Positions 731 to 59,012 of a stretch of DNA of 64,000 nucleotides are shown here, piece after piece (positions within the stretch are counted from its first letter, which is position 1; each line of letters starts with the position of its first letter). The notes beneath the pieces are model-generated. The model did no database searches and had not been told where the DNA came from. It saw only the letters and a program-made list of their open reading frames with translations. A program made the translations under genes and the position numbers. This stretch comes from Polytrichum commune (taxonomy: Eukaryota; Streptophyta; Polytrichopsida; Polytrichales; Polytrichaceae). The stretch spans positions 47,053,169 to 47,117,168 of the forward strand of contig OX485806.1 in assembly GCA_950295325.1 (NCBI GenBank), in the 5' to 3' direction.

Positions 731-1054
731 TCATGCTCGAAGCCAAATCATATATAATTTTCTGTTCAAAATGAATTATAACATTAGAATACTATGCAAT
801 ATGATATGTTGGAGAATGTTAAAATGCTTTAAAATAAAATTCAAATCTTAAAAAATGGCCTTGAAATATTTAGGGTAGTACATGCTTGGATAGTGTAGAA
901 TGAATATAAAAACAATATATGGATCTTTTAGCATCAAGAAAAGAGAAAGGCTAAAATTTATTTGGTTGGTGAAGTGTAGAGATAAGGCTTTAAATCCATA
1001 AGGTCCATAGTTTGATGCTCGGTAACATTGTTTTGATTGAACCTCCATTTGATT

Positions 1055-2110
1055 TGTCACAGTATGCGGCGTTGGCGGCCGCACTTTATCCGTTGGGCTT
1101 CATCCATTTAGATTTGGATAAATGAATGTTAGATGTGGAGAGGAAGGCTCGTAAGTGAGGAGCCTCCTTTTTGGCTTGGCATTCTTGCCAAGTCAAGTCT
1201 TATGAATAAGTGTGTGGAGAGAGTTGGTGTGAGGTGAAGATTGCATATTTTTGCAATAAATCTTGAGTTCATCTCCTATTTCTTACACTTTTAGATTCTC
1301 TCGTGATGGAGTGAAAGATAGCTTGACTCATTGTCTGCATTTGAAGAGAAATTAAAGCTCTTTTAAGGGTTTGACTTTCTTCCTTCTCACTTGGCAAGAA
1401 TGCTTCATTTTTCTTTTTTTCTTCTTCATTATTGAGATATTATGTGCAAGGAAGGGCGTGAGGACAAAGAGTGACGAAGTTGTAAAATGTTGGAGCGAAG
1501 AACACCGCGGATTTGTGGGGCAACAAGAAAAAAATTGGTTGCTTGTGAATGCCACATCAAGGTGAATTGTGGTGATGGATTATTGAATTATCTATGGAAT
1601 TTCTTGTCATATATTCACTTACAAGCTTGAATTCACATCATTGAGCTTGTGAAGAGCATTTTGGATTTCGATTCAAGTTTAATTTCATTCAAAAAAAATT
1701 AAAAATTAAAATAAAATAGGAGAGGCGGAGGAGCTCCTCTGGGATCTCCTATTTCATCAAGGTAGCTAGTGGCCGTCTGAAGGCACGCGGCGTCAATCCG
1801 CTCCCCCCTCTCCCGTCCCCATTCCTCCCCCTCTATCCCAGCTAGCCCCCCCTAGCCTCCCCCTACCTAGCCCCCTAGCCTATCCCCTAGGCCAACGCAC
1901 CTAAGCCTCTCCCCCCTAGCTAGCCTAGGCCCCCCTAGGACCACCCCCTAGACCCCTACCCCCCCCCCCCCGTCTACGTTTCCCCTCCCCCCCACCGACA
2001 AGTGGCTCTCAACCCCCCCCCCCGGGCCTTGCAACTGTAGGATAGGCTGCTGGCCGGCAGCAGCCAGCAGCCCCCCCATTTTTTATTTTTAAATTAAAAA
2101 AAATTAAAAA
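1055..2110 (+). mobile_element. LTR of family Y (copy Y1)
   Basis: It begins TGTCACAGTATGCGGCG and closely matches the reverse complement of 14665-15900 (Y2) and the sequence from 21847 (Y3) through the segments around GGCGGCCGCAC, GGAGAGGAAGGCTC and TTTTTGCAATAAATCTTGAG. The shared 5' edge in three unrelated contexts defines the LTR start. AATAAA near 1257 is a plausible poly(A) signal. The 3' edge is unclear because the match fades in an A/T-rich run after the C-rich tract; no target-site duplication was found. It may be a solo or truncated LTR. Confidence 0.65.
1798..2070. repeat. C-rich low-complexity tract
   Basis: About 270 bases of C-runs punctuated by CTAG, inside the Y1 LTR. It ends in a GC-rich hairpin around GCTGCTGGCCGGCAGCAGCC. 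It is replaced by a shorter, different GC-rich segment in Y2, so it probably expanded by slippage. Confidence 0.7.
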
Positions 2111-2383: not shown

Positions 2384-2558
2384 TCATATTGGTTTCTGCT
2401 TCAATGTCTCAAATGCTTGTTGCTGCTCACAACCCCAAGTCCAAGGTTGGTCCTTGCTTGTGAGAATGGTAAGAGGCTTGGCGATCAAGGTAAAGTTCTT
2501 GACGAATCGACGATAGTAATTCACCAAGCCCAAGAAAGCACGAAGTCTCGGCACATCG
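2384..2558 (-). pseudogene. Reverse transcriptase connection/RNase H start, copy 1 (separated piece)
   Basis: The peptide contains RAFLGLVNYYRRF, the hallmark of the thumb/connection region following the Ty3/gypsy palm, and then WTWGCEQQQAFETLK at the start of RNase H. It continues the frame that stops at 5404 after KVDTLQKILAP, the two being separated by the Z1 insertion. The frame ends at about 2384 and RNase H proper and integrase are lost, replaced by unassigned sequence down to about 2110. It is not functional. Confidence 0.8.
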
Positions 2559-3310
2559 ACCGGTGTGGTACTTTTGGGCCACCCCCTTTCGAGGGAGCCT
2601 AAAAGTATCACACAAGCCCTTCGGTGAAGGTGGCCTGCATTTGCAGGCGCCCAAGCCGAACCCGGATGATAGGTGTATAACGTGAGTAGTTAGATTTTTA
2701 AGGGAGATTAAATATGCGTCGTAGTACCTCCGGAGGTTAGGCCTTAGTTTTTTACTAGTGTGGCTTTAAACTCCACTAACCAATTTCATATCTAGTTCTA
2801 ACCTTAACCTACAACCTATTCTACGCGCAGACGCACCAGCCTTGAAACCAAGGCAATCCTAATTTGTGAATTGGGATGGTTCTGATACACCCAACCGGGT
2901 GTGACTCATACCACCCTAACTCAACGAACGGAATAACGACAATTTGATGGACCATTCAATTCTTCCTATTTCTTTATTTAGTTCTATTTAGTTTTCTAAG
3001 CGGGGGAACTTGGCCTAAGTCCCATCCTTCACACAAATTCCTTCTTAATTACTTACTTTTGTTTGCACGTCCTAACTCACTACATTAACATATTAGGCAT
3101 CACCCCTTACCTCGGGTCTCTTGCCAACAAGGGTTTACGATTTATTTTGTATGTTTTGATTGTTAAATGTGTTTACACTGGATAGACCACGAAATGCAAC
3201 TCAATGGGACCAGGGTGACGGGCGACCTGTAGGTTCAACCTGTTGCGCAATCTTCATAAATTGGGGCCATTACTCCCAATCTATGGGGCCAACAACATAA
3301 TAGTGGATTC

Positions 3311-4560: not shown

Positions 4561-5403
4561 CTAAGCCTTCAGGGCATTGGCAGATGAGGTCTATAATGCC
4601 TCTACTCAAAACTCTACCATCCAACCTACCTCTACAAAAGAAGGAATAATTTTGTTGGTGTGTTAATAAACACACAACCTAACTAGGAGAGAGAGAGTAG
4701 AGGAGGTTCTCAAGCCTTTCTTTTAGACCATTGAGAATACATGCTAAAGGATTTTTTCCTAACTACATTGAAGCAGGGCTTCGCCCAAAAACTAGAGAAA
4801 GAGAGAGAGCTACAAGGTGGAAGGAGGGGTTTTTAAACCCTCTCACAAAAGGGTTGGACCCCTCCTCCACCGGATCCATTTTTCAAACCCTTTCCCGAAA
4901 TTTTGGCTCGGGGGTTTTCCCGGTTGAGGTTGCCATCCTCTCGCCGAGGTGGCTCCGACAGAAAACCTTTAGAAATCTTTCTAATTTTTCCGCCATCGAG
5001 TTGGCAAGGGGGCAAGTGGGCAAGTAGCCCCCTTGCTCTCTTTCTTTTTTGTCTTCAGAAGTCTTCAAGCCGATTTTATCTTCTTACCTAAACCACCTCT
5101 AATAGTCTTGTGTGCCTCACACTAACTAATAAATTAACACTTGCTTAGCTAGCATTTACTAACATTTGCTTAATAGCTAGCATCTACTAATATTTGCTTA
5201 GCTAGTTGTTTTTACTAGCTAGCATATTTTTTTCTACTTTGCTATCTTCTAGCACTACTTAGTTTCATTTTGACCTTCCTTCTTCTAGGCTAAATGCTAA
5301 ATGAACTAATTTTTCCTAAATTCCCTATCAATTCTAACTTTTAATGCTAACATTCTAACTAAAAGTGATCCCGCAGAGTGGTGGACCACTCAAAGGGTTC
5401 ACA

Positions 5404-6297
5404 ACCGGTGCCAGGATCTTCTGCAAGGTGTCCACCTTAGCTTGTTGCACCCCAAAACCTCCTGGAATAATCATATGACCTAGATATGCTAGTCGGTCAT
5501 GGAAAAACTTGCACTTGCCATGATGCAAGCGCAATCCCCACCGCCGTAATCGCTCAAAAACGGCTTGAAGATGCTTTACATGCTCATGTGGTGTTTTGCT
5601 AAAAATGATTACGTTATCAATGTAACACCGAGCAAAAGGCAAGCCAGAGAGAACTTGGTCCATCACTCTCTGAAACTCAGCAGGCGCATTCTTGAGGCCA
5701 AATGGAAGAAACTTCCAATGGTATAGTTGATCCTTCCCATGTGATCAACTCTCCAAAATGCGGTCTTCACCTGATCTCCCGTAAGTAATGGGAGTTGGTG
5801 ATATCCGGATCTCAAGTCCAATGTGCTAAAAACCCGAGAAAATCCGATGGCATCGAACAACTCCTATGGGATTGGCATGGGATACCGATCCGACTTGGTC
5901 TTCCGATTAACTGGACGATAATCCCCACACATTCGTTTCTCCGTCCAATTGCCAAAGATATCCTTCTTTGATGGCATAACCGTAGCACAAGAATACTCCC
6001 CGTTGGAAAGTTTGATTAGCCCTACTGCCAAGAGCTCTCGGAAACACTGAGCCTGTAAGGTCTCCGAAAAATGGGATGGTCGTCCTCCAACTGAATGTGG
6101 ATGGGTTTTCCTTTATAACCTTCAAGATCCTGAAGGCTAAAAGCAAAACATCTACGGTACGAACAAATAAATGCTCATACCTTCCGTGCTTCAACACCAG
6201 TGAGACGAGGGCCTAATTCAAGTGGCCAATCATCAAACTCTCTAGTCTCCCTCTCCACCAAAGGAGAACCACCTGATGCTGGTATAGACTCTAATTG
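5404..6297 (-). pseudogene. Ty3/gypsy reverse transcriptase, copy 1
   Basis: Minus-strand pieces in shifting frames give, in order, IHIQLEDDHPIFRRPYRLS (finger region), MCGDYRPVNRKTKSDRYPMP, FSTLDLRSGYHQLP (first catalytic aspartate motif), a GLKNAPAEFQR-like remnant and FARCYIDNVIIFSKT (YxDD box). The second aspartate of the YxDD box is Asn (YIDN), which would impair polymerisation. At least three frameshifts or stops (near 5985, 5870 and 5690) are visible. It follows the methyltransferase domain directly with a serine-rich linker, so both belonged to one polyprotein. It is continued by 2558-2384 beyond Z1. Confidence 0.85.
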
Positions 6298-7697
6298 CTA
6301 CTGAGAGGAGGGGGCATTGACCATGCCCCCAGTCATAGTGCTAGTACTAGAATTTGGCATTTCTTCATCACCACCAATATATGATGATGAAGCCACCACC
6401 GGAGGCGAAAAAACCAAAGCAGTGTAAAAATGTTGAGCTCGAAGCTCCTCCATCACATGCTGCTCGAATTGAAAAATTCGTTCGGCTTCTCCAACCATGG
6501 CGTGAATTCCCTCCTCCATAGATGTGGACCGCTGTGCTCCCTGACCAGAGTCCTCTGCCCCCGGAGACAACCACTGGTTACCACGATGCCTTTGCAATGA
6601 AAGGCATAAAGCAACAGTCCACACCATGGTATGAAGATCCATGGCTTGGCCCAACACGAAGCGTCGTTGGCCCTCAGAAAGGCCGGGAGCAGCGGTGGTG
6701 CTAGTGCGGAATCCCATAGCACGCTCCCGTTCGTCAGCCATTGGTTCGGTGTGGGTTTTGGTGTGAACATCCCACACCATACCCGGCCCCAGATCGCGAA
6801 AAGCGAAGGACTGTGGAAACGTCATAAATGTGGGAAAGGCCCGCCGTGGCGCCCCCATTTTATTGACCAATGCCAACGGGGGCAAATCATCTCAAACAAC
6901 CGGCAAAGAAATCCGGTGTGGATCCAAGATGTTATTCACCTTTTGATCGAAAAGTGGAGGCACTGCAGAAAATGCTGCAGCTAAAGTAGATGACGGTGTG
7001 AGGTTGGTCCAAATCCACCAAGGCCGGTGGGCATAAGAACCAATGCTCGCGGCATCCACAAAAATGGGATCTCCAAGGTGTTGACGAACATAATGATCGC
7101 CTTCCAACACCTTGTCCCGAGAGTCTCCCAACAAAGGTACATTCTTGAAAATATACCATGGAGGGGAAGGTTGGTGGGAAAACCACCACTGCATGAGGCG
7201 GATGAGGTCCCAAAATAGAATAGACCTGGGATCCTCTAGTCCTCCGTCTGCTTCAGCATGTGAGTGGCCTTGGCATGGCCAACCTACAATCACCATATTC
7301 ACTCGACCCAAGTGTCGTAAGTCGGCCTCACTGATGAGTGTGACATCACGAGGGAGACGTGAAAAACACCCATGAATGGCAGTCGGGTGTAATTGCTGAG
7401 GATACAACACCATCAACTGGTGAAGATGGTGACGAGCCATACGGGTGGACACTTGAGAGTTGTCCACATAGACATACCGCTTGACCGTAAGGCCAACCTC
7501 CAATACGGCTGCTAATCCTGTGCCAATGCCCCCAAGCAGCTCCACCAAAGTAATCCCAATGTCTGGAGGGCGTCACAAAATGGGGCGTGCCAATGTGGAT
7601 AGACTATCCGATATGACTGGTGTGGGAGAACTGAGAGAGAGGACAATGTCCTCACACTATTGGAACAAGCCGGAGGAATCACGCCACGGAGGTAGAG
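6298..7697 (-). pseudogene. Cytosine-5 DNA methyltransferase domain within gypsy pol (DNMT3/DRM-like), copy 1
   Basis: One minus-strand frame carries the C5-methyltransferase motifs in canonical order. Motif I is ELLGGIGTGLAAV (SAM binding, near 7545-7505), followed by YVDNSQ. Motif IV is GWPCQGHSH with the catalytic Cys (near 7280). Motif VI is FKNVPLL (near 7150), where the usual Glu of ENV is Lys. Motif VIII-like is AHRPWWIWTNL (near 7030). Motif IX-like is ERERAMGF and motif X-like is RRFVLGQAMDLHTMVW (6730-6610). The VDAASIGSYAHRP...WTNL block resembles DNMT3-type enzymes more than bacterial or DNMT1 types, although PCQ replaces the DNMT3 PCN. Stops occur near 7655 (TAG), 7587 (TGA for Trp) and 6894 (TGA). 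The frame then runs to 6298 through a low-complexity linker to reverse transcriptase. An X LTR cuts off its N-terminal side. It is inactive as it stands. Confidence 0.85.
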
Positions 7698-8673
7698 TGT
7701 CGCAACCCTTGCTAGCCCCCCCTTGACAATCTTGCCAATTTTCAATTCTAGCAAAGGTTACGAGTCGCTAACCCTTCACATTCCGCCATGCTAATGGTTA
7801 GCTCCTCTTACCCCGGACCATATAGTTCATAGGAGGGGAACCAACCCTCCTACTTTGCTTTCGGGACTCACCCCTTAATCGGTAACCCATTCCTAGATGT
7901 GGACTTCCATCCATGGAAGTCCCATCTTATGTTGATCATCGCGTTGCCAGAGCAACACTACAACAACCCGAGTCATACTAGGCAACTATGGCCTCACAAT
8001 GGGCCAATGCCCATGGAGGCCTTGCCGTTCGGCCTCGGGTGGGTGAGGCCACACCACCTCACCCATATAAGCCTCTAGGACTTCACGCGGGGCCCCTACC
8101 CCACCGTCAACCAACCTCTTGTCTCTCTACCAAGAGTTGGGGCCAAGTGGACATTTTCCCTTAGCTGCTGGGCCTAGAACCCCCCAGCAGCTTCAGACCA
8201 TCATAACTTCCTTGTATGATGTCTGATCATAACAACCAACCACTCCATCTTCATCTACGCTTCACGTAGATGCCGATGGACTCCTCACTTGCCCCATTCG
8301 GGCAAGTATTGAGGAAGTTATGCCTGTTTGAACCTTGGCAGTCCCGGGAATCACTCCCAGGCACTGCTGTACCAGGGCGCTGTCCCGGGACAGCGCCCCA
8401 CTCAAATGGCCATAACTCCTAGCTCACACCTCCGATTGAGGTGTTCTTGAGCTTTCTAGAATCACCACGCCATGAGCTACGCATAACTCATGGCCTTACC
8501 CTTGTGCCTCCTAGTCTTCGTGGGTGGGAGGCGTCCCCAACGCCCAGGGCCCTCACCCACACTAGGATCACTTGGGCCCTCTCACCAACGGCGCCACAAG
8601 TCCCGGGTGTCACTCCGGGGTCCCCCTTGTGCCCATGGTGTTTCGGGCACTCCTCATGGAGAGGTGCGCGACA
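7698..8673 (-). mobile_element. Family X LTR, copy A
   Basis: Minus-strand LTR that starts TGTCGCGCACC and ends GGGTTGCGACA, like 43926-44898, whose adjacent PBS fixes the orientation. On the minus strand it is preceded at 8674-8690 by a purine-rich run (GGTGGGGGTGAG), as expected for the polypurine tract upstream of a 3' LTR. Flanks (TAGAG and CTCAC) do not match, so it is not a clean solo LTR. It contains the X-family hairpins: a GGGCGCTGTCCC dyad at about 8376-8399 and ACTTGCCC/GGGCAAGT at 8287-8307. Confidence 0.85.
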
Positions 8674-10515
8674 CTCACCCCCACCAAACGGAGTCGATGC
8701 CCTCATCGATTATACTCGTAGTCGGCACACCAATTCTCAAGTTGCCATCCTCTATGGTGCGGCATTGTGTTTACCTTAGGGCGCGACCCCCACAATGCAT
8801 CTTCAAATTTGGCATAGTCCCAAAGGTATTGCCTTGCTATCAAAGGCTTTGTGCTATCAAGGGAAAACATGTTTGTTTTGTGGACAAATTATTGGAAATT
8901 GCTTTTGTGGCACTAAACCAATTCGTCCCACGGACGAAATGTTAAAAGTTGGCTTTGCGGACCGAGCCAAAACATATTGTTGCGGTGGACGGAGAATTAG
9001 ATGGTGGCTTTGTGGCCAAGGCTAGTAGCCTTAAGCCAAGGCCAAGTCATGTATACCTTGAGGCTCAAATGAATGGGAGATATGTCTCATGAGTTGTCAA
9101 AGAGGCAACGGACTCTTTCATGAGCCGAAAGCTCACAAGGGGGTTGGGGCTCGCGGACGGGTAGAGCCGGCAAGCCCACCAAAGTACGGTTTGCAAAGGG
9201 CGAACCGCATGAAGCAAAGGAGGCGGCGATGCATGTAACCTTTTGATGTGGGACATTAGATTTTTGTCAACATTTCACTCTATGTGAAATAAATGAGGTG
9301 CATGTCATTGGAAAGGTCGCCTTCTTTGAAACTCACATGAAAGATGTGAGGTGCAAGCCGGTGTGCTTGCGGTGCATTATGATGTGTCATAATGGCAAAG
9401 AGATGAAGTTCAAATTGATAAAGACTCCTATGGTAGGAGGACCCAAGTTGAATTTGGTCTTAATGGACCAAATGAAAAATGGCCAACATAATAGTCTTGG
9501 TTCAATTGGAGCAACTCGATAGAACTTATGGGGAGGCTAGGAAAGATGGGCCTCCCCTAAACCACTTTGGTGGGATGTTGGGGAGATACAATGATGTATT
9601 CACCAATGTGTTGCCCAAAAGTTACCGCCAAGAAATGAAAATAACCTTGCTCAACAAGATATTGAGTTCTAGAGGTATGTGGTGACAAAGGAAGTTGGTG
9701 ACAAACATGAAGAATATCAAGGCCATCCAAAAGGAGAATTGGTCCTTGACTCAAGAAAATGGCTTAGTTCATTTGTTGGCCTAGCCAACTACTACCACCA
9801 CTTTATTCGAGGTTTTTCTAAGGTTGCTAGGACCTTAGTCAATTTGTTGAAAAAATGGCTATCCCAAGAGTGGGATGAGCCTTGTCACCAAGCCTTTGGG
9901 AAGCTCAAGAGCAAGTTCCCTTCACAAGATGTGGTTAAGTTTCCGGGTTTTCATAAGCATTTTGAGGTGCACATGGAGACGAAGGATTTTATCATTGGCG
10001 GATGTTGATGTAAAAAAAAATAAAAAAATGGCCATTGCATATGGGAGCATGAAGCTCGATGGTTGTCCGACTTGTGAAAGAAATGGCTATCCCAAGTGTG
10101 GGACTAGCCTTGTCACCAAGTCTTTGGGGAGCTTAAGAGCAAGTTCTCTTCGCCGCCCGTGCTCAAATTCATGGAATTTGACAAACCTTTTGAGGTGCAT
10201 ACGGGGGCGAGTAACTTTGCCAATGATGGATTGTTAATGTAAGATGGATGGCCTTTGCATATGGGGGCTTGAGGCTCGATGGTTGTCAAAGAAGACAACC
10301 AACTCATGACAAAGAACTTCTTTGTCGTAGTGCATTGCTTGAAGATGTGGCGACATTATTTGGGGTCGCACAAAGCAAAGGTCTACATGGACAATGTGTC
10401 CTAAAAGTATTTTAACATATACAAGCGCAAGTGAGCGCCAAGTCATTGCGGTGGCATGATAGTTTGGCGTTTATGAAGGTGGATTTGGTCCACAAACCGG
10501 ACCGGGGAAATGTGG
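8674..10515 (+). mobile_element. Family X gypsy internal fragment (protease to RNase H), inverted relative to LTR A
   Basis: After about 120 bases that may be the 3' end of an X element on the minus strand, the plus strand carries decayed X pol sequence matching the minus strand of 38936-41401. It has a cysteine-bearing region (8850-9020), the GEARKDGPPLNHFG segment (9540-9570), FVGLANYYHHFIRGFSKVARTLVNLL at the end of RT (9770-9860), two tandem copies of the RNase H start (9870-10000 and 10075-10215), and a final stretch with SAKSLRWHDSLAF in which the RNase H end is recognisable. At about 10515 it joins gag of the DNMT element. Many stops and shifts are present. Confidence 0.75.
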
Positions 10516-11347
10516 CCAACCTAGATTCTCTGGGAAACCTCGCCAACCTAGTATACATGGTACGAGGTGTATTGTCCTTCTCCCGTCTGAAATCTTGTAT
10601 CCGCTGCATCTGGTCACGACGGAAGCCTCTGTACTCCTCTTGTAGATGCAGCTCAAATGCCAGCAATGGCTCAAAATCTGGCGGCGCCCCTAAAGAGGCT
10701 AAAGCCGCTTGGGTGGCCTTGGCATAACGCGATAGTGGAAGAACTGGGCTCGACGTATTCGTTGCAGTGGGAGCAGGACCCGTAGCTCTCGGCTCACCAG
10801 AAGGAGCTTCCTCCACATCCACCATATAACCTCCCTCCGTTACCTCTGACTTAACCTCGGGAACGGCCATCAAACTGGAAGTTGTTCCTTCCTTCAATGC
10901 GGACACCAACTCAACCCGAGTCTCCCAATGTCGCTCCACCTGGCGCAGCTCCATCCAATGAGCATCCGTCCATTGCTCATAGGTCTGGAGAGCTTCGTGT
11001 TCCAAATGCTGTGGCAAAAGCTCGAACGCATACCAATCGTTGAAGTTGGTATTGCGTTGACGTTTCTTCCTCATCCATGTTCTGAACCAAATTTTCCAAT
11101 CTTGCAGGGAAATGGTCCCCGCTCGACCAGAAAATCGGTCCCGGATGCCGCCTCGCGTCTCCTCCTCCATCTCGTCAAAGGATCCCACCCAAAGGATGTG
11201 AGACCGAGTGGCAGTCGCCCACGCCGAAGTAGGCTGAAAAGCCTCGTCGGGTGCTACCACGGGTTCACTGTCCAAAAGGTCCGAAAATTGACCTTGCGAT
11301 GATGCCGGATTTGGAGAACGATAATGTTGGCTCCGAGTTGTAACCAT
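10516..11347 (-). pseudogene. Gag of the DNMT-carrying gypsy element, copy 1 (C-terminal part lost)
   Basis: Starts MVTTRSQHYRSPNPASS and stays open for about 277 residues. The core has ISLQDWKIWFRTWMRKKRQR and WYAFELLPQHLEHEALQTYEQW, a helical capsid-like region of Ty3/gypsy gag, followed by an acidic proline/serine linker and a charged MQRIQDFRREKDNTPRTMYTRLARF segment. Copy 2 (16287-18068) is collinear and continues into zinc knuckles, which copy 1 lost where the X fragment joins at about 10515; the antisense X sequence keeps the frame open to 10412. This is the best preserved gag in the window. The ATG lies about 75 bases inside the Z2 insertion edge. Confidence 0.8.
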
Positions 11348-11424
11348 AAATCCACAATAGGTTTGGTCACTGGAGCCAACAACCTAAACTAATGTGGTGT
11401 TAGGGTAAAGGTAACTTACACCTG

Positions 11425-14664: not shown

Positions 14665-15900
14665 TGTCGGGAATATGTGTTGACAAACACAATTCAACCC
14701 TAATAATAGTTTATTTTAGGTCGAACGGAATTCCACATGCCATCCAATCTCCAATAGCATTCCCCTCGGAAATTTTGTACAACCGACCCCTAAAAAGAAA
14801 TACCAAGCATTTTTAATATTTCATAAAAGCTTATGTGTTCCTCCTTGTGTCCTTGATTAATGAGCCCAAGAAATTAACCTCTTAGATAGAAGAGAAAAAT
14901 TAAAAGTTGAAAGGAAACATAAACTAATTAATTAACGCCATTTACCGCTGACAGACGCCCGTTACCGCTGATTGACGCCGGCCAGCAGACAGTGTAGGGG
15001 GAGCCAAAGCCAGTGCAGGGACAGCAGTAGAGGGAGGCTGGCCGCCTCCCGCTTCTTCCCTCAATTTTTTTTTTTAAATTTTTTTTGAATCACTTGAACT
15101 TGAATTGGAATGAGGAATGCTCTCAACAAGCTTAAGAGTATGAATTCAAGCTTGCAAGTAAAAAAAAATGACAAGGAATTCCGTGGAAAATTGAATATTT
15201 TATCACCACAATTCACCTTGATGTAGCACTCTCAAAGAAACATTCTTCTTCTTGTTGCTCCACAAATCTGCGATGTTCTCCGCTCCAACACTTTAAAACT
15301 CAGTCACTCCTCGTCCTCACATTCATTCTTGAATGTTGGAGCTCAAAATTTGAAAAAAAGATAAAGAATCATGCATTCTTGCCAAGTGAGAAGGAAGAGA
15401 ATAGAACACTCATAAGAGCTCTAAATCTCTCTTTAAATGCATACAATTAATCAAGCTATCTCTCACTTTACCAAGGGAGAATCCAAGAGTGTAAGTAGAG
15501 AAAGAAGAACTCAAGATTTATTGCAAAATCATGCAATCTACACCTCACGCAAGGTCTCTCCACACACGAGAAGGAAGAGAGTAGAACACTCAAGAGCTCT
15601 AAATTTCTCTTCAAATGCACACAATTAGTCAAGTTATCTCTCACTCCACCAAGGGAGAATCCAAGAGTGTAAGTAAAAGGAGAAGAACTCAAGATTTATT
15701 GTAAAATCATGCAATCTACACCTCACACAAGCTCTCTCCACACACTAACTCACAAGACTTGACTTGGCAAGAATGCCAAGCCAAGGAGGAGGCTCATCAC
15801 TTAGGAGCCTCACTTTCCAAAACTAAGGTTCATCCATCCAACTCTAAATGGATGAAGCCCAACGGATAAGGTGCAGCCGCCCACGCCACATACCGTGACA
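14665..15900 (-). mobile_element. Family Y LTR, copy Y2
   Basis: On the minus strand it starts TGTCACGGTATG and ends ATATTCCCGACA. It matches Y1 and Y3 at the 5' edge. It contains an internal tandem duplication of about 190 bases (15430-15735) holding the AATAAATCTTGAG block twice. No target duplication (AAAAA on the left, GCGCG on the right). It sits exactly between the two divergently oriented DNMT elements and cuts copy 2 at its leader. Confidence 0.75.
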
Positions 15901-16286
15901 GCGCGGTCAATTTGAATTTTACTTATTTGTTGTTTGGGGAAGAAGATCCAGTGCTGCATTTGCATTGTTTTTCTTAATTCATTGTGGTACCTTCCTCATG
16001 GCGGGCTGTATTACTAGACATTGCCAGCATTGCCTCATTTTGTGTTGTGCCAGTTTGTGATAGGGTATTTTAGGGGTGAGGTCGGAGTGATTACCGACGG
16101 GGCGTTTGTGTGTACACCAAGTGGGCAGTGCTTGTATTCCTTCATGGTGAGGCTTGAGTAATGACCAGCAGACCGTAAGGTTGGTGGTAATTGCAGGTAC
16201 ATGTAATCTTTTTTATTTTTTTATTTTACCTTGACACAAGTGTAATGTAGGTTGTTGGCTCGAGTCACCATATTCATTGGGGGTTT
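15901..16286 (+). promoter_or_regulatory. Leader of DNMT element copy 2
   Basis: Aligned by eye to 14238-14530 (reverse complement) and 11348-11419 of copy 1. It has the stem-loops GTCGG-AGTGATTA-CCGAC (16081-16098) and GCTTG-AGTAATGA-CCAGC (16152-16169, one mismatch). GTAGGTTGTTGGCTCGAGTCACC just before the gag ATG is shared with copy 1. Confidence 0.55.
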
Positions 16287-18068
16287 ATGGTTACAACTTG
16301 GACCTAACATTATTGTTCGCCATCTCTAGGAGCATCGGAAGGTCAATCACTAGATCTCTCAGACGTTGAACCAATGGTAGCACCCGACGAGCCTACTTCG
16401 GCATGAAGAACTGCCACTCGGTCTCATGTCTTGTGAGTAGGGATCTTTGACAATATGGAGGAGGAGACGCGAGATGGAGTCCGGGACCGGTTTTTGGGTC
16501 GAGCAGGGACCATTTCCCTGCAAGACTGGAAAATTTGGTTTAGAGCGTGGATGTAGAAGAAACGTCAACGCAATACAAGTTTTAATGATTTGTATGCGTT
16601 TGAACTTTTGTCTCAACATCTAGAGCACAAAGCACGTCAGACTTATGAGCAATGGAGGGACGCTCATTGGATGGAGTTGGATCATGTAGAGCAATACTGG
16701 GAAACTCGGGTGGAGTTGATTTCCGCGTTGAAAGAGGGTGCAACTTCTAGTTTATTAGTCCCACATGTGGTGAAGACGGAGCAAGCGGAGAGTGTTTGTA
16801 GTGGACGTGGAGGGAACCATTCCTAGTAAACATAAAAAAAACGTTTTTTTTTTCCGTATCCGCGTGTACATCGAATTTGATCTTCCCACTCTCCCGCTAT
16901 GCCCAAGTTATATAAGCGACATTAGCCTTTTTTGGAACTCCGCATGATTTTGATCCTCTGTAAGAATTACAATTTCATTTGAAAAAGAATATAAAGGTTT
17001 TTGCGGGAACCAAATGTGGCGGATCCAAGACTTCAGGGACGAGAAAGATGACACACCTCGTACCATGTATACGCAGTTGGCAAGATTTTCCAGAGAATCT
17101 GGAGGGGTTTTCACGGAAAGCCAGTTGATGAAGATGTTTTTGTCAAAGATTGACAAACGCCTCATTGATTTAGCTCTATTCATGATTATCATGAATTATG
17201 CTGGTCGGACGACACTTGTAGAGGATTTCGCCATTATAGAGGAATGTGATCGTGTCTTGTGTCAACATGATGCCATTGATTTGGTATCTTGTTAGTGAAT
17301 TCTAGCAAATCTCGGAAGGTTACGGTTGCGGCTGCAAGATTGGCAGTGGCAGAGGTGGACAAAACCTTGTATTGTTGGTCTCGTGGGCAGGCGGGCCACG
17401 CTAAGAAGGATTGTCCTTCAAAGCAAAGGCATTCCCATACCGTAGGGAATCCGAAGCGGAAACCAATTGCTCCCGCTAAGAATTCGACGAAAGGGGCGGG
17501 TAATCATTTATCTAAGCAGCTAATTTGTTCCCATTGTGGGCGGAACAATCACATGGTGGCAAACTACTTTGCTCTCCATCTAGAGAAACGTCCTTTTTCT
17601 GAATGCGAAAAAACGTTGGAGGTAAATATTGGAGCTTTGGAGGAGAGGTTCAAAACTTTGGCGTCATCCGGCCAAATTTTGGACTCACCGTCTTCCTCCG
17701 GAGCTAAGGCAAATTCTTCCACTCCGGATTATTATATGTTCAAAGCCTCGGGGGAGGTGGTGAGTTCTGTAGTGGTGACACATGCTCAATCTGTGTCACG
17801 AACCACGCCTTGGACCAAAGGTAAGTCTGTGGGCAGCTTACGAGCTCGGGACAATGGTCTCGCGGATCAGATTGGCCAGGCCCATCTACCATTGTTTTTT
17901 ATATTGACGGATGTTGTCCAATCTATCAGTGGTCGAAATTCGTGTTTGGAGGTTTCAAATCCTGCGACTGACGTGATGCACACTTTTGCATCCAAAGTGT
18001 TGCATACACCTTTGTTTATGGCGATGGAGTGCTTGTCGTCAGGCATCCAACCAACTAAGGGTTTATAG
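16287..18068 (+). pseudogene. Gag with two zinc knuckles, DNMT element copy 2
   Basis: Starts MVTT and follows copy-1 gag, with ISLQDWKIWFRAWM and YAFELLSQHLEHKARQTYEQW (16500-16650), then a diverged linker and PRTMYTQLARFSRESGG (17040-17110), continuing into the capsid C-terminal helices (LSKIDKRLIDLALF). Near 17370 comes CWSRGQAGHAKKDC, a CCHC knuckle whose second Cys is Arg; near 17525 comes CSHCGRNNHMVANYF, whose last Cys is Tyr. The rest is a serine-rich spacer. Stops at about 16305, 16398, 16556 and 17293 plus a frameshift near 16810 inactivate it. It bound RNA in the ancestral element, by family knowledge. Confidence 0.75.
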
Positions 18069-18259: not shown

Positions 18260-18700
18260 TAGCCTCTGCGGGCACAACTTATTTTCAGATGTAGCTGCTC
18301 GATCTGCTCGCGAGCATCGAAGCATTGTACGTATGGTGAATGATTCCGGCATTTTGGTGGTTGGTTGGGCTGGGGCAATACAATTCGAGTTGCTCCCCAT
18401 TGTGTAATGGATTTGGGGACACAACCTGTTATGATCAACAAAAAACTTACGCAAGAATTGCGGTTGACGGCCGATGACTTGGTTCCTTGTTCATTTACCA
18501 TCGTCACATCCATTGGCCACATGGAGCGGACCATTGATTATACTCGGTAGCCACTACAACTTAGGTTCTGAGTGAAGCCTGGAGATCCATTTGCACCTCT
18601 TCTAATTAGGTGTGCGGTAACAGAGGCGACCAACTACGACATTTTAGTTGGTCAGCAAACATTTTACCTTCTCGATTTTTGTTTGGACAACTAGACTGAG
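18260..18700 (+). pseudogene. Retropepsin-like protease region, copy 2
   Basis: The peptide VAPHCVMDLGTQPVMINKKL (18385-18445) matches the retropepsin active-site context, with DLG in place of D-S/T-G. TNYDILVGQQTFYLLDF (18625-18690) matches the C-terminal strand region typical of gypsy proteases. It lies between gag and the methyltransferase, which gives the position of the foreign domain. Broken by stops at 18548-18550 and 18571. Confidence 0.6.
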
Positions 18701-18735
18701 GGGGCGTGAATCCGACCAGTATTAGGGTGGGAATG

Positions 18736-19560
18736 GCCGCAAGGAACTTACTCTTGTGGCATTTGCGGCCGCTGCTACTATAACACCATTATCTTTGGTT
18801 TTTGGGTGTGGTAGTTTTACTGACACATTGCCCTATGGCTCCGCATTATTGGAGGAGTCATTGGCATTTATGGGGAGTGCTGAGGATCAACGGGAGATGG
18901 TACCTAAAGTTCATTGGTGCGTCATCCCAAGGATCCTCTTCCTCCTTGGCACGATTCTACAGAGCTACTCCGGAGATGTGAGGACATTATCCTCTCTATC
19001 GGTTCTACGACACATGTCATACCGGCTAGCCCATCGGCATTGGTACACCCCATTTTGTGGCGCCCGTCGAACAAGGGGATTACTTTGGTAGAAGTTTTTG
19101 GGAGCATCGGAATGGGATTGGTGGCTGTGTTGGAGGCTGGCCTCACGATTCGACGGGTTGTCTATGTGGACAATAATCAAGTATCCACCCATGTGACTCG
19201 TCACCATTTCCACCGGTTGATGGTGTTGTACCCACAGCAGTTACACCCGACTGCCCATTTTTATGACGTTTCCACTGTCATTCGCATTCCGCAATTAGGG
19301 GTTGGGTATGGTGTGGGATGCTCACACCAAAACCATTGGCTGACAAATGGGAGCGTGCCATGGGATTTCGCACTAGCACCACCGCAGCTTTTGGCCTTTC
19401 TGAAGGCCAACGACGCTTCATGTTGGGCCAAGCCATGGATATTCATACCATGGTGTAGACTGTTGTTTTATGCCTTGTATTGCAACGGCATCATGATGAC
19501 CAGTTGTTGTCTCTGGGGGCCGAGGACTCTGGGGGCATAGCGGTCCACATCCATAGAGAA
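18736..19560 (+). pseudogene. Truncated cytosine methyltransferase domain, copy 2
   Basis: The N-terminal part is collinear with copy 1: PHPILWRPSNKGITLVE-like sequence (18995-19090), motif I VFGSIGMGLVAVLEAGL (19095-19145), VVYVDNNQVSTHVTRHHFHRL (19155-19220). A deletion near 19265 then removes motifs IV to VIII, including the catalytic PCQ. The sequence resumes at the motif X region in RTSTTAPPQ-like and LKANDASCWAKPW form (19370-19440, in a shifted frame). Its presence in the same place in both copies shows that the methyltransferase was part of the ancestral element. Not functional. Confidence 0.8.
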
Positions 19561-19614
19561 GGGAATTGAGGTCATGGTTGGAAAAGCCGAACGGATCTTT
19601 TGATTCGAACAGCA

Positions 19615-19927
19615 GGTGATGGAGGAGCTTCAAGCTCAATGGGTTTATACTGGTCCATATCTTTATGGTTTGCGCTTTACTTTGGTGACTAACCATCAGT
19701 CGTTACGGTGGCTCATAAAGTCGGATAAGCTTACTGGCAAGCTTGCCAGGTGGGTTTTGTTGCTCCAGGAATATGACTTTGAGGTGATAGATCGTGTTGG
19801 GATTACCAACCTGGATGAAGATGGACTTTCACGCAATCCAAGTCCTTTGGATGAGGACTTGACCGGGGCTAGGTGGCATAGAGATTGTGATCGAGAAGCG
19901 GTTCCAGGTTGGCATGCGGCTACTTAA
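19615..19927 (+). pseudogene. RNase H, DNMT element copy 2
   Basis: Contains LVTNHQSLRWLIKSDKLTGKLARWVLLLQEYDFEV and a GITNLDEDGLSRNP end, the conserved C-terminal half of Ty3/gypsy RNase H (the HADxLSR-like motif is altered to DEDGLSR). It is fused directly behind EELQAQWVYTG, which in copy 1 belongs to the linker after the methyltransferase, so all of reverse transcriptase and the N-terminal half of RNase H are deleted. Confidence 0.8.
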
Positions 19928-20149
19928 CTCATTTCATTTTCTGGTGCGGCTGTTGAGGTTTCGATATACGGCTTGGATGATGAGATTGATTGACCTCAAG
20001 CTATTGCAGATATATGGGAGGAATTTTCTCGTATTACATAAACTTTAGTAGGGGACTTTTCCTATGTCTACCTTGGCAATAGAAAGGGATAGGATTGGAC
20101 ATCAAATAACAAGGTTCCATTAGGAGAACGGTTTGTTGTTTTGATTGTG

Positions 20150-21245
20150 GTCGGATGGGACAAGGCGTATTGTCCTTAGACCGGATTAGAAGGCTTCCTT
20201 GTTGCGGCAAGTGCACGAGGAACTTGGCCATTTTGGCATATGCAAGACACATTCGATGTTGCGTGGCCAATGTTGGTAGACTCGCATGTATCAGCAGGTG
20301 GTTGCTTATGTCGGGAGGTGTGAAGTTTCTGACCGGATCAAGTCTAGATTTAACACCTTGTTACCTATTATGGGATTGGGCTACCGTTGGTCGTTGGACT
20401 TTGCAGGACCGTTGGTTGTCACACCACGTGGAGAAAAGTACATGTTGGTGATGGTGGAGCATTTTGGCAAATGAATTGAGCTTGTTGCTCTACCCCAAAA
20501 CTCTACAGAGTTGGCCGCAGGTGCCTTTTTGGATTGTGTGTTGGCACATTTTGGAGCACCGACTGAGGTATTGATGGACCAAGGGAGGGAGTTTCTTGGT
20601 GATTTTGAGGAGTTGTGCATTTAGTTGCTCATAGATCACTGCACCACCTTTCGGGATCATCCGGAGGCGGATGGCTTGGCTGAACGGATTGTTCAGACAA
20701 CCAAACGTGACTTGAGGAAGTATGGTTTACTTCGGGGGAGCCATCGGGATTGGGACATTATGTTGCCTTGGATTGCTATGGGCTATTAATTTAGTAGGCA
20801 GGCCTTTTTGGCATCTTACAACCCGTATCAATTATTGTATGGACATGAGACTATACTCCCAAGTTCTATTTGGGAAAAGCTAGCTCCTGTTCTGGATTTG
20901 GATGACCCAAACATTTGGGCAAAGTGTTTGCGGGAGCGGGCTCAATGCTTATGGCCATGGAGAATTTGTCCATTGCTCAATACTGTGACACATTGCATTA
21001 TGCACGTATTTGCAGTGGTGCTTACCGACCTCAGTTGCGGAGATTCCGGGAGAATGATTATGTTTATCTCCAATGTGAGGCACCTACAACATTGGATGTC
21101 AAGGCGGGGCACACTATCCTTTGGGTGAAGAAGGTGTTGTCGAGTGGTTTGTTGTTGTTGGAAGGCAAGGATGGCAAGGAATGTCGTGAGCATTCCAAGA
21201 ATTGTGCCCCATGTCATCTCCCCATTGAGGGTATAGTTCATCCTG
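20150..21245 (+). pseudogene. Integrase, DNMT element copy 2
   Basis: The H2C2 zinc-binding region is seen as QVHEELGHFGICKTH (20207-20250) and YVGRCEVSDR (20305-20335, last Cys replaced by Ser). The catalytic core has YRWSLDFAGPL (first Asp, about 20395), TEVLMDQGREFLGDF (second Asp, about 20573) and HPEADGLAERIVQTTKRDL (Glu, about 20682). The C-terminal domain is in another frame as RRFRENDYVYLQ and DVKAGHTILWVKKVL (21030-21140). Three stops (about 20474, 20622 and 20788) and at least one shift are present. Joins the PHD-like tail. Confidence 0.85.
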
Positions 21246-21630
21246 AACCGGCTCTCATGTCAAAGGGTTTTTCATGTTTTGTGTGTGAAGAGAAAAAATT
21301 GCGTCTACTATGTTCTTGTGTGATTAGTATTAACGTGGTTGGCACATGACATGCTTGAGGCCACCCTTGACTTCTCTACCATCTGGACAATGGAGTTGTC
21401 TTTGCTGTCGAGGATCTTCGGTACTTGGTGCTTCCACCAATTGTACTCAATGATCATGTGTGGTTTTCATCATCTTATGCATGTCCAAATAGAAAAATGA
21501 AGAGTTATGGCTTGGAAACGCAATCAACATGAGACGGTGGAATTAATTCTTTGGAATGTGATGGCCAACCATCATAGGCGATTAAGAATGGGGCTCACAT
21601 TGCACCCAGCCTACAGTTCATTGGAATGAC
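21246..21630 (+). pseudogene. PHD-finger-like C-terminal tail of the integrase
   Basis: Following the integrase tail, the sequence spells the ligands of a Cys4-His-Cys3 zinc finger: CFVC (21275-21286), a later LCD segment, GWHMTCLRPPLTSLPSGQW (21335-21393) and SCLCC (21395-21408). W-H-x2-C and the trailing W-(S)-C-x2-C are typical of PHD fingers. It needs one frame change near 21310 and crosses two stops (LCD-stop-Y-stop-RGW), so this copy is dead. A short basic tail (RVMAWKRNQHETVEL) follows to a TGA near 21629. PHD fingers commonly bind histone H3 tails; a role in integration targeting is inference. Confidence 0.65.
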
Positions 21631-21727: not shown

Positions 21728-21843
21728 GAAGGGGGGCATGTCGAGGTGTGTTGTTTATATGTGACTTTGCTATGTTTTAGTGTTCTTTGTTAGTGGTGGT
21801 TGGTACTCAAGCTGTAGTGACACACGATCGTTATTTACACGAC
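21728..21843 (+). mobile_element. Polypurine tract and start of 3' LTR, DNMT element copy 2
   Basis: GAAGGGGGGCA at 21728-21738 immediately precedes TGTCGAGGTGTGTT, as expected for plus-strand priming next to a 3' LTR. The 105-base block ends ACACGACA at 21843 and recurs almost unchanged at 22182-22286. The true length of the LTR is not clear. Confidence 0.55.
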
Positions 21844-21846
21844 AGT

Positions 21847-22181
21847 TGTCACGGTATGCAGTGTCGGCGGCCGCACCTTATCTGTTGGGCTTTATTCATT
21901 TAGTTATGGATGGATGAATCTTAGATGTGGAGAGGAAGGCTCCTAAGTAAGAAACATCCTCCTTGGCTTGGCATTCTTGGCAAGTCAAGTCTTGTGAGTG
22001 AGTGTGTGGAGAGAGTTTGTGTGGGATGAAGATTGCATGTTTTTGCAATAAATCTTGAGTTTATCTCCCTTTTCTTATACTCTTGGATTCTTCCGTGGTG
22101 GAGTGAGAGATAGCTTGACTCATTGTGTGCATTTGAAGACTCATTAGAGCTTTTGCAAGAGTTTGACTATCTTCTTTCTCT
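21847..22181 (+). mobile_element. Truncated family Y LTR, copy Y3
   Basis: Begins TGTCACGGTATGCAGTGTCGG and follows Y1 for about 335 bases, then stops abruptly at CTTCTTTCTC where the second 105-base block begins. It lies between two copies of that block. Confidence 0.7.
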
Positions 22182-22286
22182 GTCGAGGTGTGTTATTTAT
22201 GTGTGACTTTGCTATGTATTAGTTTTGTTTGTTACTGGTAATTGGTACTCGAGCTGCAGTGACACATGATCGATATTTACACGACA
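22182..22286 (+). repeat. Second copy of the 105-base DNMT-element LTR block
   Basis: TGTCGAGGTGTGTTATTTATG to ACACGACA matches 21739-21843 almost base for base. The two direct copies bracket Y3. Confidence 0.75.
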
Positions 22287-27121: not shown

Positions 27122-28108
27122 TGTTGCGCACCTCTCCATGAGGAGTGCCCGAAACACCATGGGCACAAGGGGGACCCCGGAGTGACACCCGGGACTTGTG
27201 GTACCGTTGGTGAGAGGGCCCAAGTGATCCTAGTGTGGGTGAGGGCCCCGGGCGTTGGGAACGCCTCCCACCCACAGAGACTAGGAGGCATGAGGGTAAG
27301 GCCATAAGCTATGCGTATCTCATGGCGTGGTGATTCTAGAATGCTCAAGATCACCTCAAGCGGAGGTGTGAGCTAGGAGTTATGGCCATTTGAGTGGGGC
27401 GCTGTCCCGGGACAGCGCCCTGGTACAGCAGTGCCTGGGAGTGATTCCCGGGACTGCCAAGGTTCAAACAGGCATAACTTCCTTAAGAATTACCTAAATG
27501 GGCAAGTGAGGAGTCCATCGGCATCTACGTGAAGCGTAGATGAAGATGAAGTGGTTGGTTGTTATGATCAGACATCATAAAAGGAAGTTATGATGGTCTG
27601 AAGCTGCTGGGGGGGTTCTAGGCCCAGCAGCTAAAGGAAAATGTCCACTTGGCCCCAACTCTTGGTAGAGGGACAAGAGGTTGGTTGACGGTGGGGTAGG
27701 GGCCCCGCGTAAAGTCCTAGAGGCTTATATGGGTGAGGTGGTGTGGCCTCACCCACCCGAGGCCGAACGGCACAGCCTCCATGGGCTTTGGCCCATTGTG
27801 AGGCCATAGTTGCCTAGTATGGTTCGGGTTGTTGAAGTGTTGCTCCGGCAACGCGATGATCAACATAGGATTGGACTTCCATGGATGGAAGTTCACATCG
27901 AAGAAATGGGTTACCGATTAAGGGGTGAGTCCCGAAAGCAAAGTAGGAGGTAGCTATGAGTAATTGTTTCCCCTCCTATGAGCTATATGGTCCGGGGTAG
28001 GAGGAGCTAACCATTAGCATGGCGGAATGCGAATGGTTAGCGCTCGTAACTTTTACTAGAATTGAAAATTGGCAAGATTGTCAAGGGGGGTTAGCAAGGG
28101 TTGCAACA
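27122..28108 (+). mobile_element. Family X solo LTR, copy E
   Basis: TGTTGCGCACCTCTCCATGAGG at the left, GGGTTGCAACA at the right, flanked by CCCTC duplications at 27117-27121 and 28109-28113. Carries the X hairpins, including the GGCGCTGTCCC dyad near 27400 and CATCTACG/CGTAGATG near 27522-27542. The ACTTGCCC hairpin is degraded on one side here. Confidence 0.9.
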
Positions 28109-28113
28109 CCCTC

Positions 28114-29229
28114 TCTCTGGCCATGGCTTACTCTTCGGGTGGCTATGAGTTTTTCTCAAGATCGTTCCCTATATCCACTTGGTTATTTGCTTTTTATTTC
28201 CCATGCGGAAATTACTTGCCTCTTGACCTTCCATCAGTCACGTGCTTACACATTCTTCATAAGATGATTGCCCTTGTATTGGCAATTAATCTTTACCTCC
28301 TCTCATATGCTTGGTAAAACGACTTAAATGTTTATCACCAACTTTATTACCTCTTACATTCAAACTACATCTTTGTTTATTGTCAAAGCTAGTTATTTCT
28401 AGATCATTATGATCCTATTAGTTCTCATACATTCATTTGCCTCCTTCACACATTGCCCATGGCCAGTAATTCACTTAGTCAAGTCGAGTCAATCTTCGTT
28501 TTCCAACCTTCAACTGCTCACTAGCATAAAGCTTTCTCTTAGACTATTATTTATATTAATTCCCTCAGTCATGATATTTATACACATTATGTTTCAACTG
28601 ACATCGTTCCTTCTTCTTAGGTTCAAATCTTCTTCTACTTGGCATGTCGCCCAAATGCAGTTTCTTAAACTTCAACTCTCATAATCTTTAAGCAACTATA
28701 CTCACACTTTGACAAATGATTGAATCAAATAGATTCTCATTTTCTCCAAATCACAAAACAACAACCATCAAAGTTCCACTTCAAGACATCAAAACCATTA
28801 CACATCAAAGGAATTTATTTTTTATAACGAAGTTCAAAGACCCAAAAATTCGAATCACTCGGATCTACATCAACCTCTTTTTATTTCTCTCAAGTATCTT
28901 ACTCGGAAAATGTCTCTCTAGACACAATCATTGAGTTCCTAGGATTGCTATGACATGAGCAGTGAGCAAAATTTCATGAGTAGTGAGTTCAATTTTTAGT
29001 CATCAAAAGTGAAACTCTATTTCTTTAAATTTTAATAACTTTGTGGCAAGGGTGTAAATCCGTAGTAATATAAACTTTAATGAAACAAATTTAACAAATA
29101 ATAGATGATGTCATACAAATAAAGGCCGATGTTATAATATAAAACAATGAAGTATATGTGAAAACCGATAATTTGGGTATTTTGAGAAAAAATATAGGTT
29201 TGGGATTGAACCTTATCGCAAGTAAAAGG
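28114..29229. other. No recognisable gene or element
   Basis: AT-rich, with small unsupported open stretches at 28409-28684 and 28716-28934 on the plus strand, hydrophobic or basic in composition. They have no recognised motif or homologue in the window. Confidence 0.45.
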
Positions 29230-37745: not shown

Positions 37746-38053
37746 GAATTGAGGTATAGGGTTTTTGAATTGAATACACATCACTTGTGTGGTGTAGCTC
37801 GACATAGTTGTTGAGGTGAACGTTGTGAGGCATGTATGTGTAGCAAGGGTTTACTTGTCTATGTCATTACGGCTTATAGTTAGTCGGCCATGAGGACCGG
37901 GTAGGCCATGAGGATTAGTTTTTCAATTGAGGGTTAGGGTTTTGAATTGAGAAGCTCGTGTGGACAAGCTTGGCTAGGTATTGGGAGGCAGGCAAGAGAC
38001 CAGAAATGGAGGTGAATGCTGTGAACTACATATTCCTTATGTGTTAGGAATAG

Positions 38054-39300: not shown

Positions 39301-39469
39301 ATACTTTTAGGACACATTGTCCTTGTAGACCTTTGCTTTGTGCGACCCCAAATAGTGTCCCCACATCTTTAAGCAATGCACTACTTACGGCAAAGAAGTT
39401 CTTTGTCATGAGTTGGTTGTCTTCTTTGACAACCATCGAGCCTCATGCCCCCATATGCAATGGCCATCC

Positions 39470-53425: not shown

Positions 53426-53439
53426 TGAATCATATATTT

Positions 53440-58997: not shown

Positions 58998-59012
58998 CCA
59001 GACTTAGCACCA

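What the first reader, a model, noticed from the sequence alone, without database searches (positions are those of the whole stretch)
6298..7697. A gypsy retrotransposon that carries a cytosine-5 DNA methyltransferase inside pol
Seen: motifs I, IV (PCQ), VI, VIII-like, IX-like and X-like of C5 methyltransferases in order, in the strand and frame context of gag and reverse transcriptase; the same domain, in the same place after protease, in the independent copy at 18736-19560. Known: capture of cytosine methyltransferases by retrotransposons has been reported in a dinoflagellate and a charophyte alga (from memory, unchecked). Inference: the element may have used self-methylation to escape or exploit host silencing. 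The DNMT3/DRM-like motif VIII region with a PCQ motif IV suggests an unusual or old branch.
Basis: partly seen in the sequence, partly recalled or inferred. Interest (0 to 1): 0.92.

Follow-up and report, generated by a model that had tools for sequence, protein, structure and literature searches.

The report
Retrotransposon carrying a DNA-methylating enzyme
Two decayed copies of a jumping gene in this stretch carry a DNMT3-like DNA-methylating enzyme, and one also keeps a broken histone-reading finger; relatives turn up in liverworts and mosses, so a genomic parasite armed with its host's silencing chemistry looks more widespread in plants than the single algal case I found in print.

The parts
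10523..11409 (-). copy A: gag region
   Evidence: 72% DNA identity to copy B gag 16225-17100 in inverse orientation; ORF 10412-11383
8855..10515 (.). between gag and methyltransferase of copy A: piece of another Gypsy-type element (related to 39198-41314), read as a nested insertion
   Evidence: self-comparison, 82-86% identity
7697..8676 (.). dispersed repeat of about 980 bp with copies at 27122, 41402, 42772 and 43925, read as a nested insertion in copy A
   Evidence: 93-96% identity; abuts the methyltransferase homology at 7697
6301..7697 (-). copy A: DNMT3-like C5 cytosine methyltransferase domain with its C-terminal tail; broken by in-frame stops at 7573-7575 and 6892-6894
   Evidence: PF00145 E 8.3e-8; DNMT3A E 1.6e-7; colinear tblastn of homologues
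6292..6300 (-). end of the gag-protease-methyltransferase ORF: TAG followed by CAATTA (tobamovirus-type readthrough context, recalled)
   Evidence: stop position shared with homologue tails
5355..6120 (-). copy A: reverse transcriptase; its N-terminal part (about 6120-6037) is in the methyltransferase frame, the rest shifts frame
   Evidence: PF00078 E 2.2e-22 on 5355-5744; frames
2399..2563 (-). copy A: piece of the RT/RNase H connection, separated from the RT
   Evidence: tblastn of P0244, 56% identity
16225..17100 (+). copy B: gag region
   Evidence: matches copy A gag
17280..18068 (+). copy B: zinc-knuckle ORF between gag and protease
   Evidence: zf-CCHC E 0.039, below the curated cut-off; matches P0136 and P0206
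18374..18745 (+). copy B: aspartic protease region
   Evidence: tblastn of P0118, P0136, P0217; Pfam finds none in ORF 18344-18550, and the protease matches of P0118 and P0136 are below Pfam's cut-offs (E 2e-4 to 4e-3)
18923..19255 (+). copy B: N-terminal part of the methyltransferase (motif I)
   Evidence: tblastn of P0003 and P0040
19254..19651 (+). copy B: C-terminal part of the methyltransferase, in three frames; motifs IV-VIII deleted
   Evidence: tblastn of P0002 and P0034; 83% DNA identity to 6420-6834
19652..19927 (+). copy B: RNase H; no RT seen between methyltransferase and RNase H
   Evidence: PF17917 E 4.4e-9 on 19604-19927
20031..21286 (+). copy B: integrase (zinc-binding part 20031-20363, core 20286-20615, C-terminal part to 21286)
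   Evidence: tblastn of P0261, P0018 and P0234; Pfam finds no integrase in the short ORFs 20280-20474, 20790-21128 and 20906-21349
21275..21408 (+). copy B: degenerate PHD finger at the integrase C-terminus
   Evidence: tblastn of the Marchantia protein P0234, whose PHD scores PF00628 E 4.4e-9; Pfam finds none in the window's own ORF 20906-21349

Best explanation
Both loci are decayed copies of one Ty3/Gypsy-type family with the order gag, zinc knuckle, protease, DNMT3-like methyltransferase, stop, RT, RNase H, integrase, PHD. Shown: domain identities and order (pieced from two copies and relatives), near-constant spacing from protease to methyltransferase, a shared ORF end after the methyltransferase, and occurrence in liverworts and mosses. 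Inferred: RT-integrase is made by occasional readthrough of the stop (UAG CAA UUA), so protease and methyltransferase are made at Gag levels. The protease frees the methyltransferase inside the particle, and it methylates the new cDNA de novo. The integrase PHD finger steers integration to chromatin with a given histone H3 state. Net effect inferred: a new copy arrives already methylated, in chromatin where methylation is tolerated, instead of being sensed as naked foreign DNA.
Against: No activity, expression or methylome data; both window copies are dead. The readthrough context is seen in one copy only, since relatives were available as proteins; the looser form TAG CAR YYA is not enriched in the window (5 seen, 3.35 expected). 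The Klebsormidium domain gave no detectable methylation in yeast, a result its authors call inconclusive (PMC5890265). CpG o/e in the element (0.57-0.83) is not clearly below the window's (0.62). dN/dS between the two copies is 0.37 (0.24-0.52), mixed with neutral decay. Protease matches are below Pfam's cut-offs. The PHD is seen in one relative, a gene model, plus a degenerate window copy.
Confidence: 0.55

Rival explanations
1. A host DNMT3 gene or pseudogene happened to lie next to, or be captured once by, a Gypsy element here; there is no element family that carries it.
For: Both window copies are degenerate.
Against: Two separate copies in the window; protease and methyltransferase in one ORF in relatives nearest to each of the five lineages (P0118 for the window's lineage, 77% to copy A); methyltransferase and integrase together in P0018 and P0234; 583 and 174 related proteins.
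Confidence: 0.02
2. The methyltransferase acts on RNA (genomic RNA or the tRNA primer) or serves as a nucleic-acid binding or structural part, not as a DNA methylase.
For: The Klebsormidium domain showed no activity on yeast DNA; DNMT-fold enzymes that act on tRNA exist (DNMT2); Gag-level production would suit a structural role.
Against: DNMT2 is a weak match (E 4e-3) against DNMT3A (3e-20); catalytic residues conserved.
Confidence: 0.15
3. Self-restraint: the enzyme methylates and quietens the element's own copies, lowering transposition to a level the host tolerates (raised as one option in PMC5890265).
For: Plausible for a vertically inherited element; published Klebsormidium copies carry CHG and CHH methylation and are silent.
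Against: No data here distinguish it from protection of the cDNA.
Confidence: 0.2
4. The family is the same capture as KnitGypsy-Dnmt3 of Klebsormidium, inherited since before land plants, and so an extension of a known element.
For: Same class of element and enzyme, both unpermuted DNMT3-type.
Against: No Klebsormidium-named row among the listed hits (75 of 75, 120 of 583, 120 of 174). The paper puts its domain in the Pol ORF of an element with DIRS-like repeats, whereas here it closes the gag-protease ORF. The sequence was not at hand, so this is open.
Confidence: 0.45

Closest known systems
KnitGypsy-Dnmt3 of Klebsormidium nitens (de Mendoza et al. 2018, PMC5890265; parts 1-4 of 7 of the text and passages read)
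   Same: LTR Gypsy element with an unpermuted DNMT3-type methyltransferase
   Different: Reported in one charophyte, domain in the Pol ORF, DIRS-like repeat structure, no PHD in the main text. Here: named liverworts and mosses and an unidentified host, domain closing the gag-protease ORF, PHD on the integrase. Sequence-level kinship not tested.
SymbioDIRS-Dnmt3 and SymbioLINE-Dnmt of Symbiodinium (same paper)
   Same: Retrotransposons that carry C5 methyltransferases; the SymbioDIRS domain methylates CG in yeast
   Different: DIRS and LINE elements, not Gypsy
Metazoan DNMT3A/DNMT3B
   Different: Motif IV PCQ rather than PCN; no PWWP or ADD among the Pfam matches of the relatives scanned; a PHD sits on the integrase instead
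Plant DNMT3 with DUF3444 (Physcomitrium; PMC6453930, passages)
   Same: Unpermuted DNMT3 class in non-flowering plants
   Different: A host gene with DUF3444, not a retroelement; no sequence was at hand for a tree

Membership tests
C5 cytosine methyltransferase (PF00145) | Pfam gathering score reached | tested here: met
   32.5 bits against 22 for window 6892-7572. Relatives: 9 of 10 (not P0118, which ends soon after motif IV) and 4 of 6 (not P0234, P0244). Not met by window 6298-6891 or by copy B's ORF 18908-19540.
C5 cytosine methyltransferase (PF00145) | catalytic motifs IV (PC) and VI (ENV) | tested here: met
   Met in the family: Cys 63 of 66, Glu 66 of 70. Window copy A keeps PCQ but its motif VI reads KNV; copy B lacks both.
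DNMT3 class | best match and fold among solved C5 methyltransferases | tested here: met
DNMT3 class | falls in the DNMT3 clade of a tree with plant and animal DNMT3, DRM, CMT, DNMT1 | not tested
   No full reference sequences at hand; only a family-internal tree was built
DNMT3 class | de novo DNA methylation activity | not testable with these tools
   needs an assay
DRM | circularly permuted motif order (recalled) | tested here: not met
   Linear order I, IV, VI, VIII, IX/X in sequence and in the model, whose residues 43-367 align to DNMT3A 630-908
DNMT1 / CMT | closest to DNMT1 or CMT structures | tested here: inconclusive
   Neither name appears among the 55 PDB sequences matched up to E 10; absence from a list is not exclusion
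Ty3/Gypsy LTR retrotransposon | RT, RNase H and integrase of the Gypsy type in the order PR-RT-RH-IN | tested here: met
   RVT_1 2e-22, RT_RNaseH 4e-9, integrase by tblastn of relatives; order pieced from two copies; protease by homology only
Ty3/Gypsy LTR retrotransposon | flanking LTRs and primer-binding site | tested here: inconclusive
   Repeats at 1054-1728, 15049-15900 and 21846-22180 do not form a clean same-strand pair round either copy; primer-binding site not looked for
KnitGypsy-Dnmt3 | orthologous RT and methyltransferase | not tested
   Klebsormidium sequence not held
Chromovirus | chromodomain at the integrase C-terminus | tested here: inconclusive
   No chromodomain among the families listed for P0234 or window ORFs 20790-21128 and 20906-21349; a PHD finger takes that place in P0234

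The most novel reading that the evidence does not exclude
An old plant Gypsy lineage, with at least five deeply split branches (one of them placed in liverworts and mosses by name), that carries both an epigenetic writer and a reader. A DNMT3-type enzyme is made at Gag stoichiometry because it lies upstream of a tobamovirus-type readthrough stop, and a PHD finger sits on the integrase. In a host whose listed methyltransferases include no DNMT3 (Marchantia), it would be the genome's only DNMT3-type enzyme.
Probability: 0.35. Interest if true: 0.85.

Novelty: new variant of a known kind. Interest (0 to 1): 0.72.

Why it matters
Cytosine methylation is a main way in which plants silence retrotransposons, so an element that keeps its own DNMT3-type methyltransferase over long evolution is a paradox. 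The Gypsy case that I found in print is a single alga. A family in Marchantia and Sphagnum puts the question into plants that can be grown, transformed and methylome-mapped. One can ask directly whether the element's cDNA is methylated before integration, whether loss of the enzyme helps or hurts transposition, and whether the methylation of Marchantia, for which five enzymes of the MET, CMT and DRM classes and no DNMT3 are listed (PMC5784723, passages), owes anything to it. A methyltransferase placed before a readthrough stop gives a stoichiometry prediction that can be tested in plant cells.

Tried and rejected
Host identity: the genome search on the window's own assembly failed ten times, so copy number, intact copies and host remain unknown. 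Rfam at gathering thresholds found nothing in the window.

DNA of relatives: six scans of viral contigs and two of genome contigs found no retroelement copy; the only hit, L001, is a weak 34% match over part of the query and was not followed up. So the readthrough context and dN/dS could not be tested in relatives.

Structure: a first model (P0030, 29 sequences) was poor (pLDDT 52.5) and was not used; the second (P0097, 78 sequences) was good.

CpG depletion as a self-methylation signature: no clear difference from the window. Gag dN/dS (0.09) is unusable because dS is saturated.

RNA structure near the stop: a hairpin lies just upstream, but the region folds no better than shuffles (z -1.09, 31 of 200 shuffles at least as stable), so no structural stimulator is claimed.

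Absences: DNMT1 and CMT names did not appear; DNMT1, CMT and DRM did not appear among the 50 entries shown; neither excludes them.

Literature: ten searches of the held library listed no paper that, from its title, the start of its abstract or the passages I read, reports DNMT-bearing Gypsy elements in land plants. Lists were capped at 20 (148 papers, 66, 494), and many subscription papers are not held, so this is not proof of novelty. Of nine papers opened I read parts 1-4 of 7 of PMC5890265 and otherwise passages only (PMC12344493, PMC6453930, PMC8616336, PMC5784723, PMC12210899, PMC8566409, PMC2864245, PMC10508981). PMC5890265 itself says that two earlier studies had reported rare DNMTs linked to reverse transcriptase. 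PMC12344493 names 'LTR Copia and DIRS' where the 2018 paper says Gypsy and DIRS.

Full report
WHAT IS THERE. The window holds two broken copies of the same Gypsy-type family. Copy A (minus strand) keeps gag (11409-10523), the methyltransferase (7697-6301) and RT (about 6120-5355), with a piece of the RT/RNase H connection at 2563-2399. Between gag and methyltransferase lie a repeat of about 980 bp (7697-8676, 93-96% identical to four other copies in the window) and a piece of another Gypsy-type element (8855-10515), which I read as nested insertions. Copy B (plus strand) keeps gag (16225-17100), a zinc-knuckle ORF (17280-18068), a protease region (18374-18745), two ends of the methyltransferase (18923-19255 and 19254-19651), RNase H, integrase and a degenerate PHD finger to 21408. 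Neither copy can encode a working product: copy A has in-frame stops at 7573-7575 and 6892-6894 and a motif VI that reads KNV; copy B has lost motifs IV to VIII, and no RT is seen in it. Several of copy B's parts (protease, integrase, PHD) are recognised only through relatives: Pfam finds no match for them in the window's own short ORFs, and the protease matches of P0118 and P0136 lie below Pfam's cut-offs.

IS IT A FAMILY. A search with copy A's ORF gave 75 proteins, a profile gave 583 with 120 listed, and relative P0097 gave 174 with 120 listed; 261 distinct proteins were listed in all. Fourteen of the 120 rows carry a plant species name and all 14 are bryophytes: Marchantia polymorpha 6, Calypogeia fissa 4, Riccia sorocarpa 1, Sphagnum troendelagicum 2, S. 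tenellum 1. One further relative, P0079, is filed under a bacterial MAG and is most likely plant contamination (inference). A tree of 63 rows (62 of 78 aligned relatives with at least 200 filled columns, plus copy A; midpoint root) shows five lineages of 9, 7, 4, 15 and 25 rows, with P0227 and the pair P0229/P0261 apart. The window copy sits with P0002 (100/94) in the nine-row lineage, which has no named host. All 14 named rows belong to the 25-row lineage: seven are in the tree there, and the other seven match it best. Identity of window pieces to the named bryophyte proteins is about 27-57%. So the family is shown in liverworts and mosses; the hosts of the other four lineages, the window's included, are unknown.

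ARCHITECTURE. In eight of the 261 listed proteins the aspartic protease motif lies in the same ORF upstream. Motif I follows by 226-240 residues in 6 of the 7 in which the script found it, and by 203 in P0217, a gene model. These eight are nearest to four of the five lineages by whole-protein score; P0118, which scores highest to P0076 overall, is closest to the window's lineage over its methyltransferase part (72% to P0003; 77% to copy A), and copy B itself shows the order there. Forty-six of the 261 run at least 70 residues past motif X. Of these, 24 end at shared positions within their lineage: nine with GG..A..TK, GG..VPS.D or GGMVNAPSSQ tails, six ending in IQ at 135-142 residues, three in GIT or GIA at 128-130, six in VFA, IFA, VVA, VLA or VFT at 93. 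The other 22 end elsewhere (contig ends, decay or gene models, not sorted out). P0034, P0079 and P0080 align up to copy A's stop at 6298-6300; five more alignments (P0076, P0077, P0078, P0084, P0212) end at 6415, short of it. So a stop after the methyltransferase looks like an old feature. In copy A it is TAG followed by CAATTA; these nine letters occur twice on both strands of the window, against 0.55 expected in 20 simulated sequences, while the looser TAG CAR YYA is near chance (5 seen, 3.35 expected). CAR YYA after UAG is the tobamovirus-type readthrough context (recalled, not looked up here). The peptide that resumes in the same frame, GYKGKPIHIQLEDDHPIFRRPYRLS, is typical of the start of a Gypsy RT (recalled); a further stop in the linker and a later frame shift are decay of this copy. 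The inference is that RT and integrase are made by readthrough, and protease plus methyltransferase at Gag levels. That rests on one copy.

PHD. Marchantia protein P0234, a gene model joining protease tail, methyltransferase and integrase pieces, ends in a PHD finger (PF00628 E 4.4e-9). The window's copy B matches it through integrase and PHD at 44-56% identity. The finger is thus seen in the window's lineage and in the bryophyte lineage, on the two sides of the tree, which suggests it is ancestral. The 2018 paper's main text does not mention PHD. PHD fingers often read histone H3 tails (recalled), so a targeting role is inferred.

SELECTION AND METHYLATION SIGNATURES. dN/dS between the two copies' methyltransferase is 0.37 (bootstrap 0.24-0.52, 236 codons): below 1 but blurred by decay. 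Conserved catalytic positions among relatives that differ by about half their residues are the stronger sign of constraint. CpG o/e is 0.62-0.64 in the methyltransferase and 0.62 in the whole window, so there is no special depletion.

COMPARISON. De Mendoza et al. 2018 (PMC5890265; parts 1-4 of 7 and passages read) described DNMT3 in the Pol ORF of a Klebsormidium Gypsy element and in dinoflagellate DIRS elements, with purifying selection. The dinoflagellate DIRS enzymes methylated CG in yeast; the Klebsormidium one did not, inconclusively. The passages that I read of a 2025 DNMT survey (PMC12344493) refer to those cases. What is added here is presence in named liverworts and mosses, five diverged lineages, the placement at the end of the gag-protease ORF, the readthrough-type stop, and the PHD. 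Whether Klebsormidium's element is the same lineage is open. One relative, P0261, has the methyltransferase followed by an integrase zinc-binding domain and an ECQ motif IV, which hints at a second arrangement.

VERDICT. A real and well-supported finding: a new variant of a known kind. Mechanism probable in outline, untested in detail.

Noticed in passing
window 53392-61643 (+): A different, less decayed Gypsy-type element: RNase H (E 8e-5, below the cut-off), then repeated Integrase_H2C2 matches in successive ORFs (E 8.5e-10, 4.4e-12, 3e-5) before one integrase core, followed by long ORFs (813, 379 and 463 aa); the 813- and 463-aa ORFs have no Pfam match, the 379-aa ORF was not tested.
   Followed up: partly
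window 7697-8676, 27122-28117, 41402-42377, 42772-43743, 43925-44898: A dispersed repeat of about 980 bp, the other copies 93-96% identical to the first; one copy lies right at the methyltransferase edge.
   Followed up: no
window 47383-51223 (+) and 32826-36371 (-): Two related sets of long ORFs with a CxC..CxH-like stretch, perhaps MULE transposases with a SWIM finger (recalled); no Pfam match in the four ORFs tested.
   Followed up: partly
window 38051-39002 and 52427-53455: Tandem arrays of related units of about 138 bp, 14 kb apart.
   Followed up: no
window 6310-6330 (-): An 8-bp hairpin sits just upstream of the TAG CAATTA stop; the region as a whole folds no better than shuffles.
   Followed up: partly
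protein P0261 (JGI, 523 aa): Related methyltransferase followed by Integrase_H2C2 (E 8e-16), motif IV reading ECQ instead of PCQ: a second arrangement, perhaps from a green alga (guess).
   Followed up: partly
protein P0079: A relative of this retroelement enzyme filed in NCBI as a DNA cytosine methyltransferase of a Candidatus Obscuribacterales MAG; probably plant contamination in the bin.
   Followed up: no
window 1054-1388, 15568-15900, 21846-22180: A 335-bp repeat; the third copy is flanked by a 106-bp direct repeat (21739-21844 and 22181-22286, 89%).
   Followed up: no
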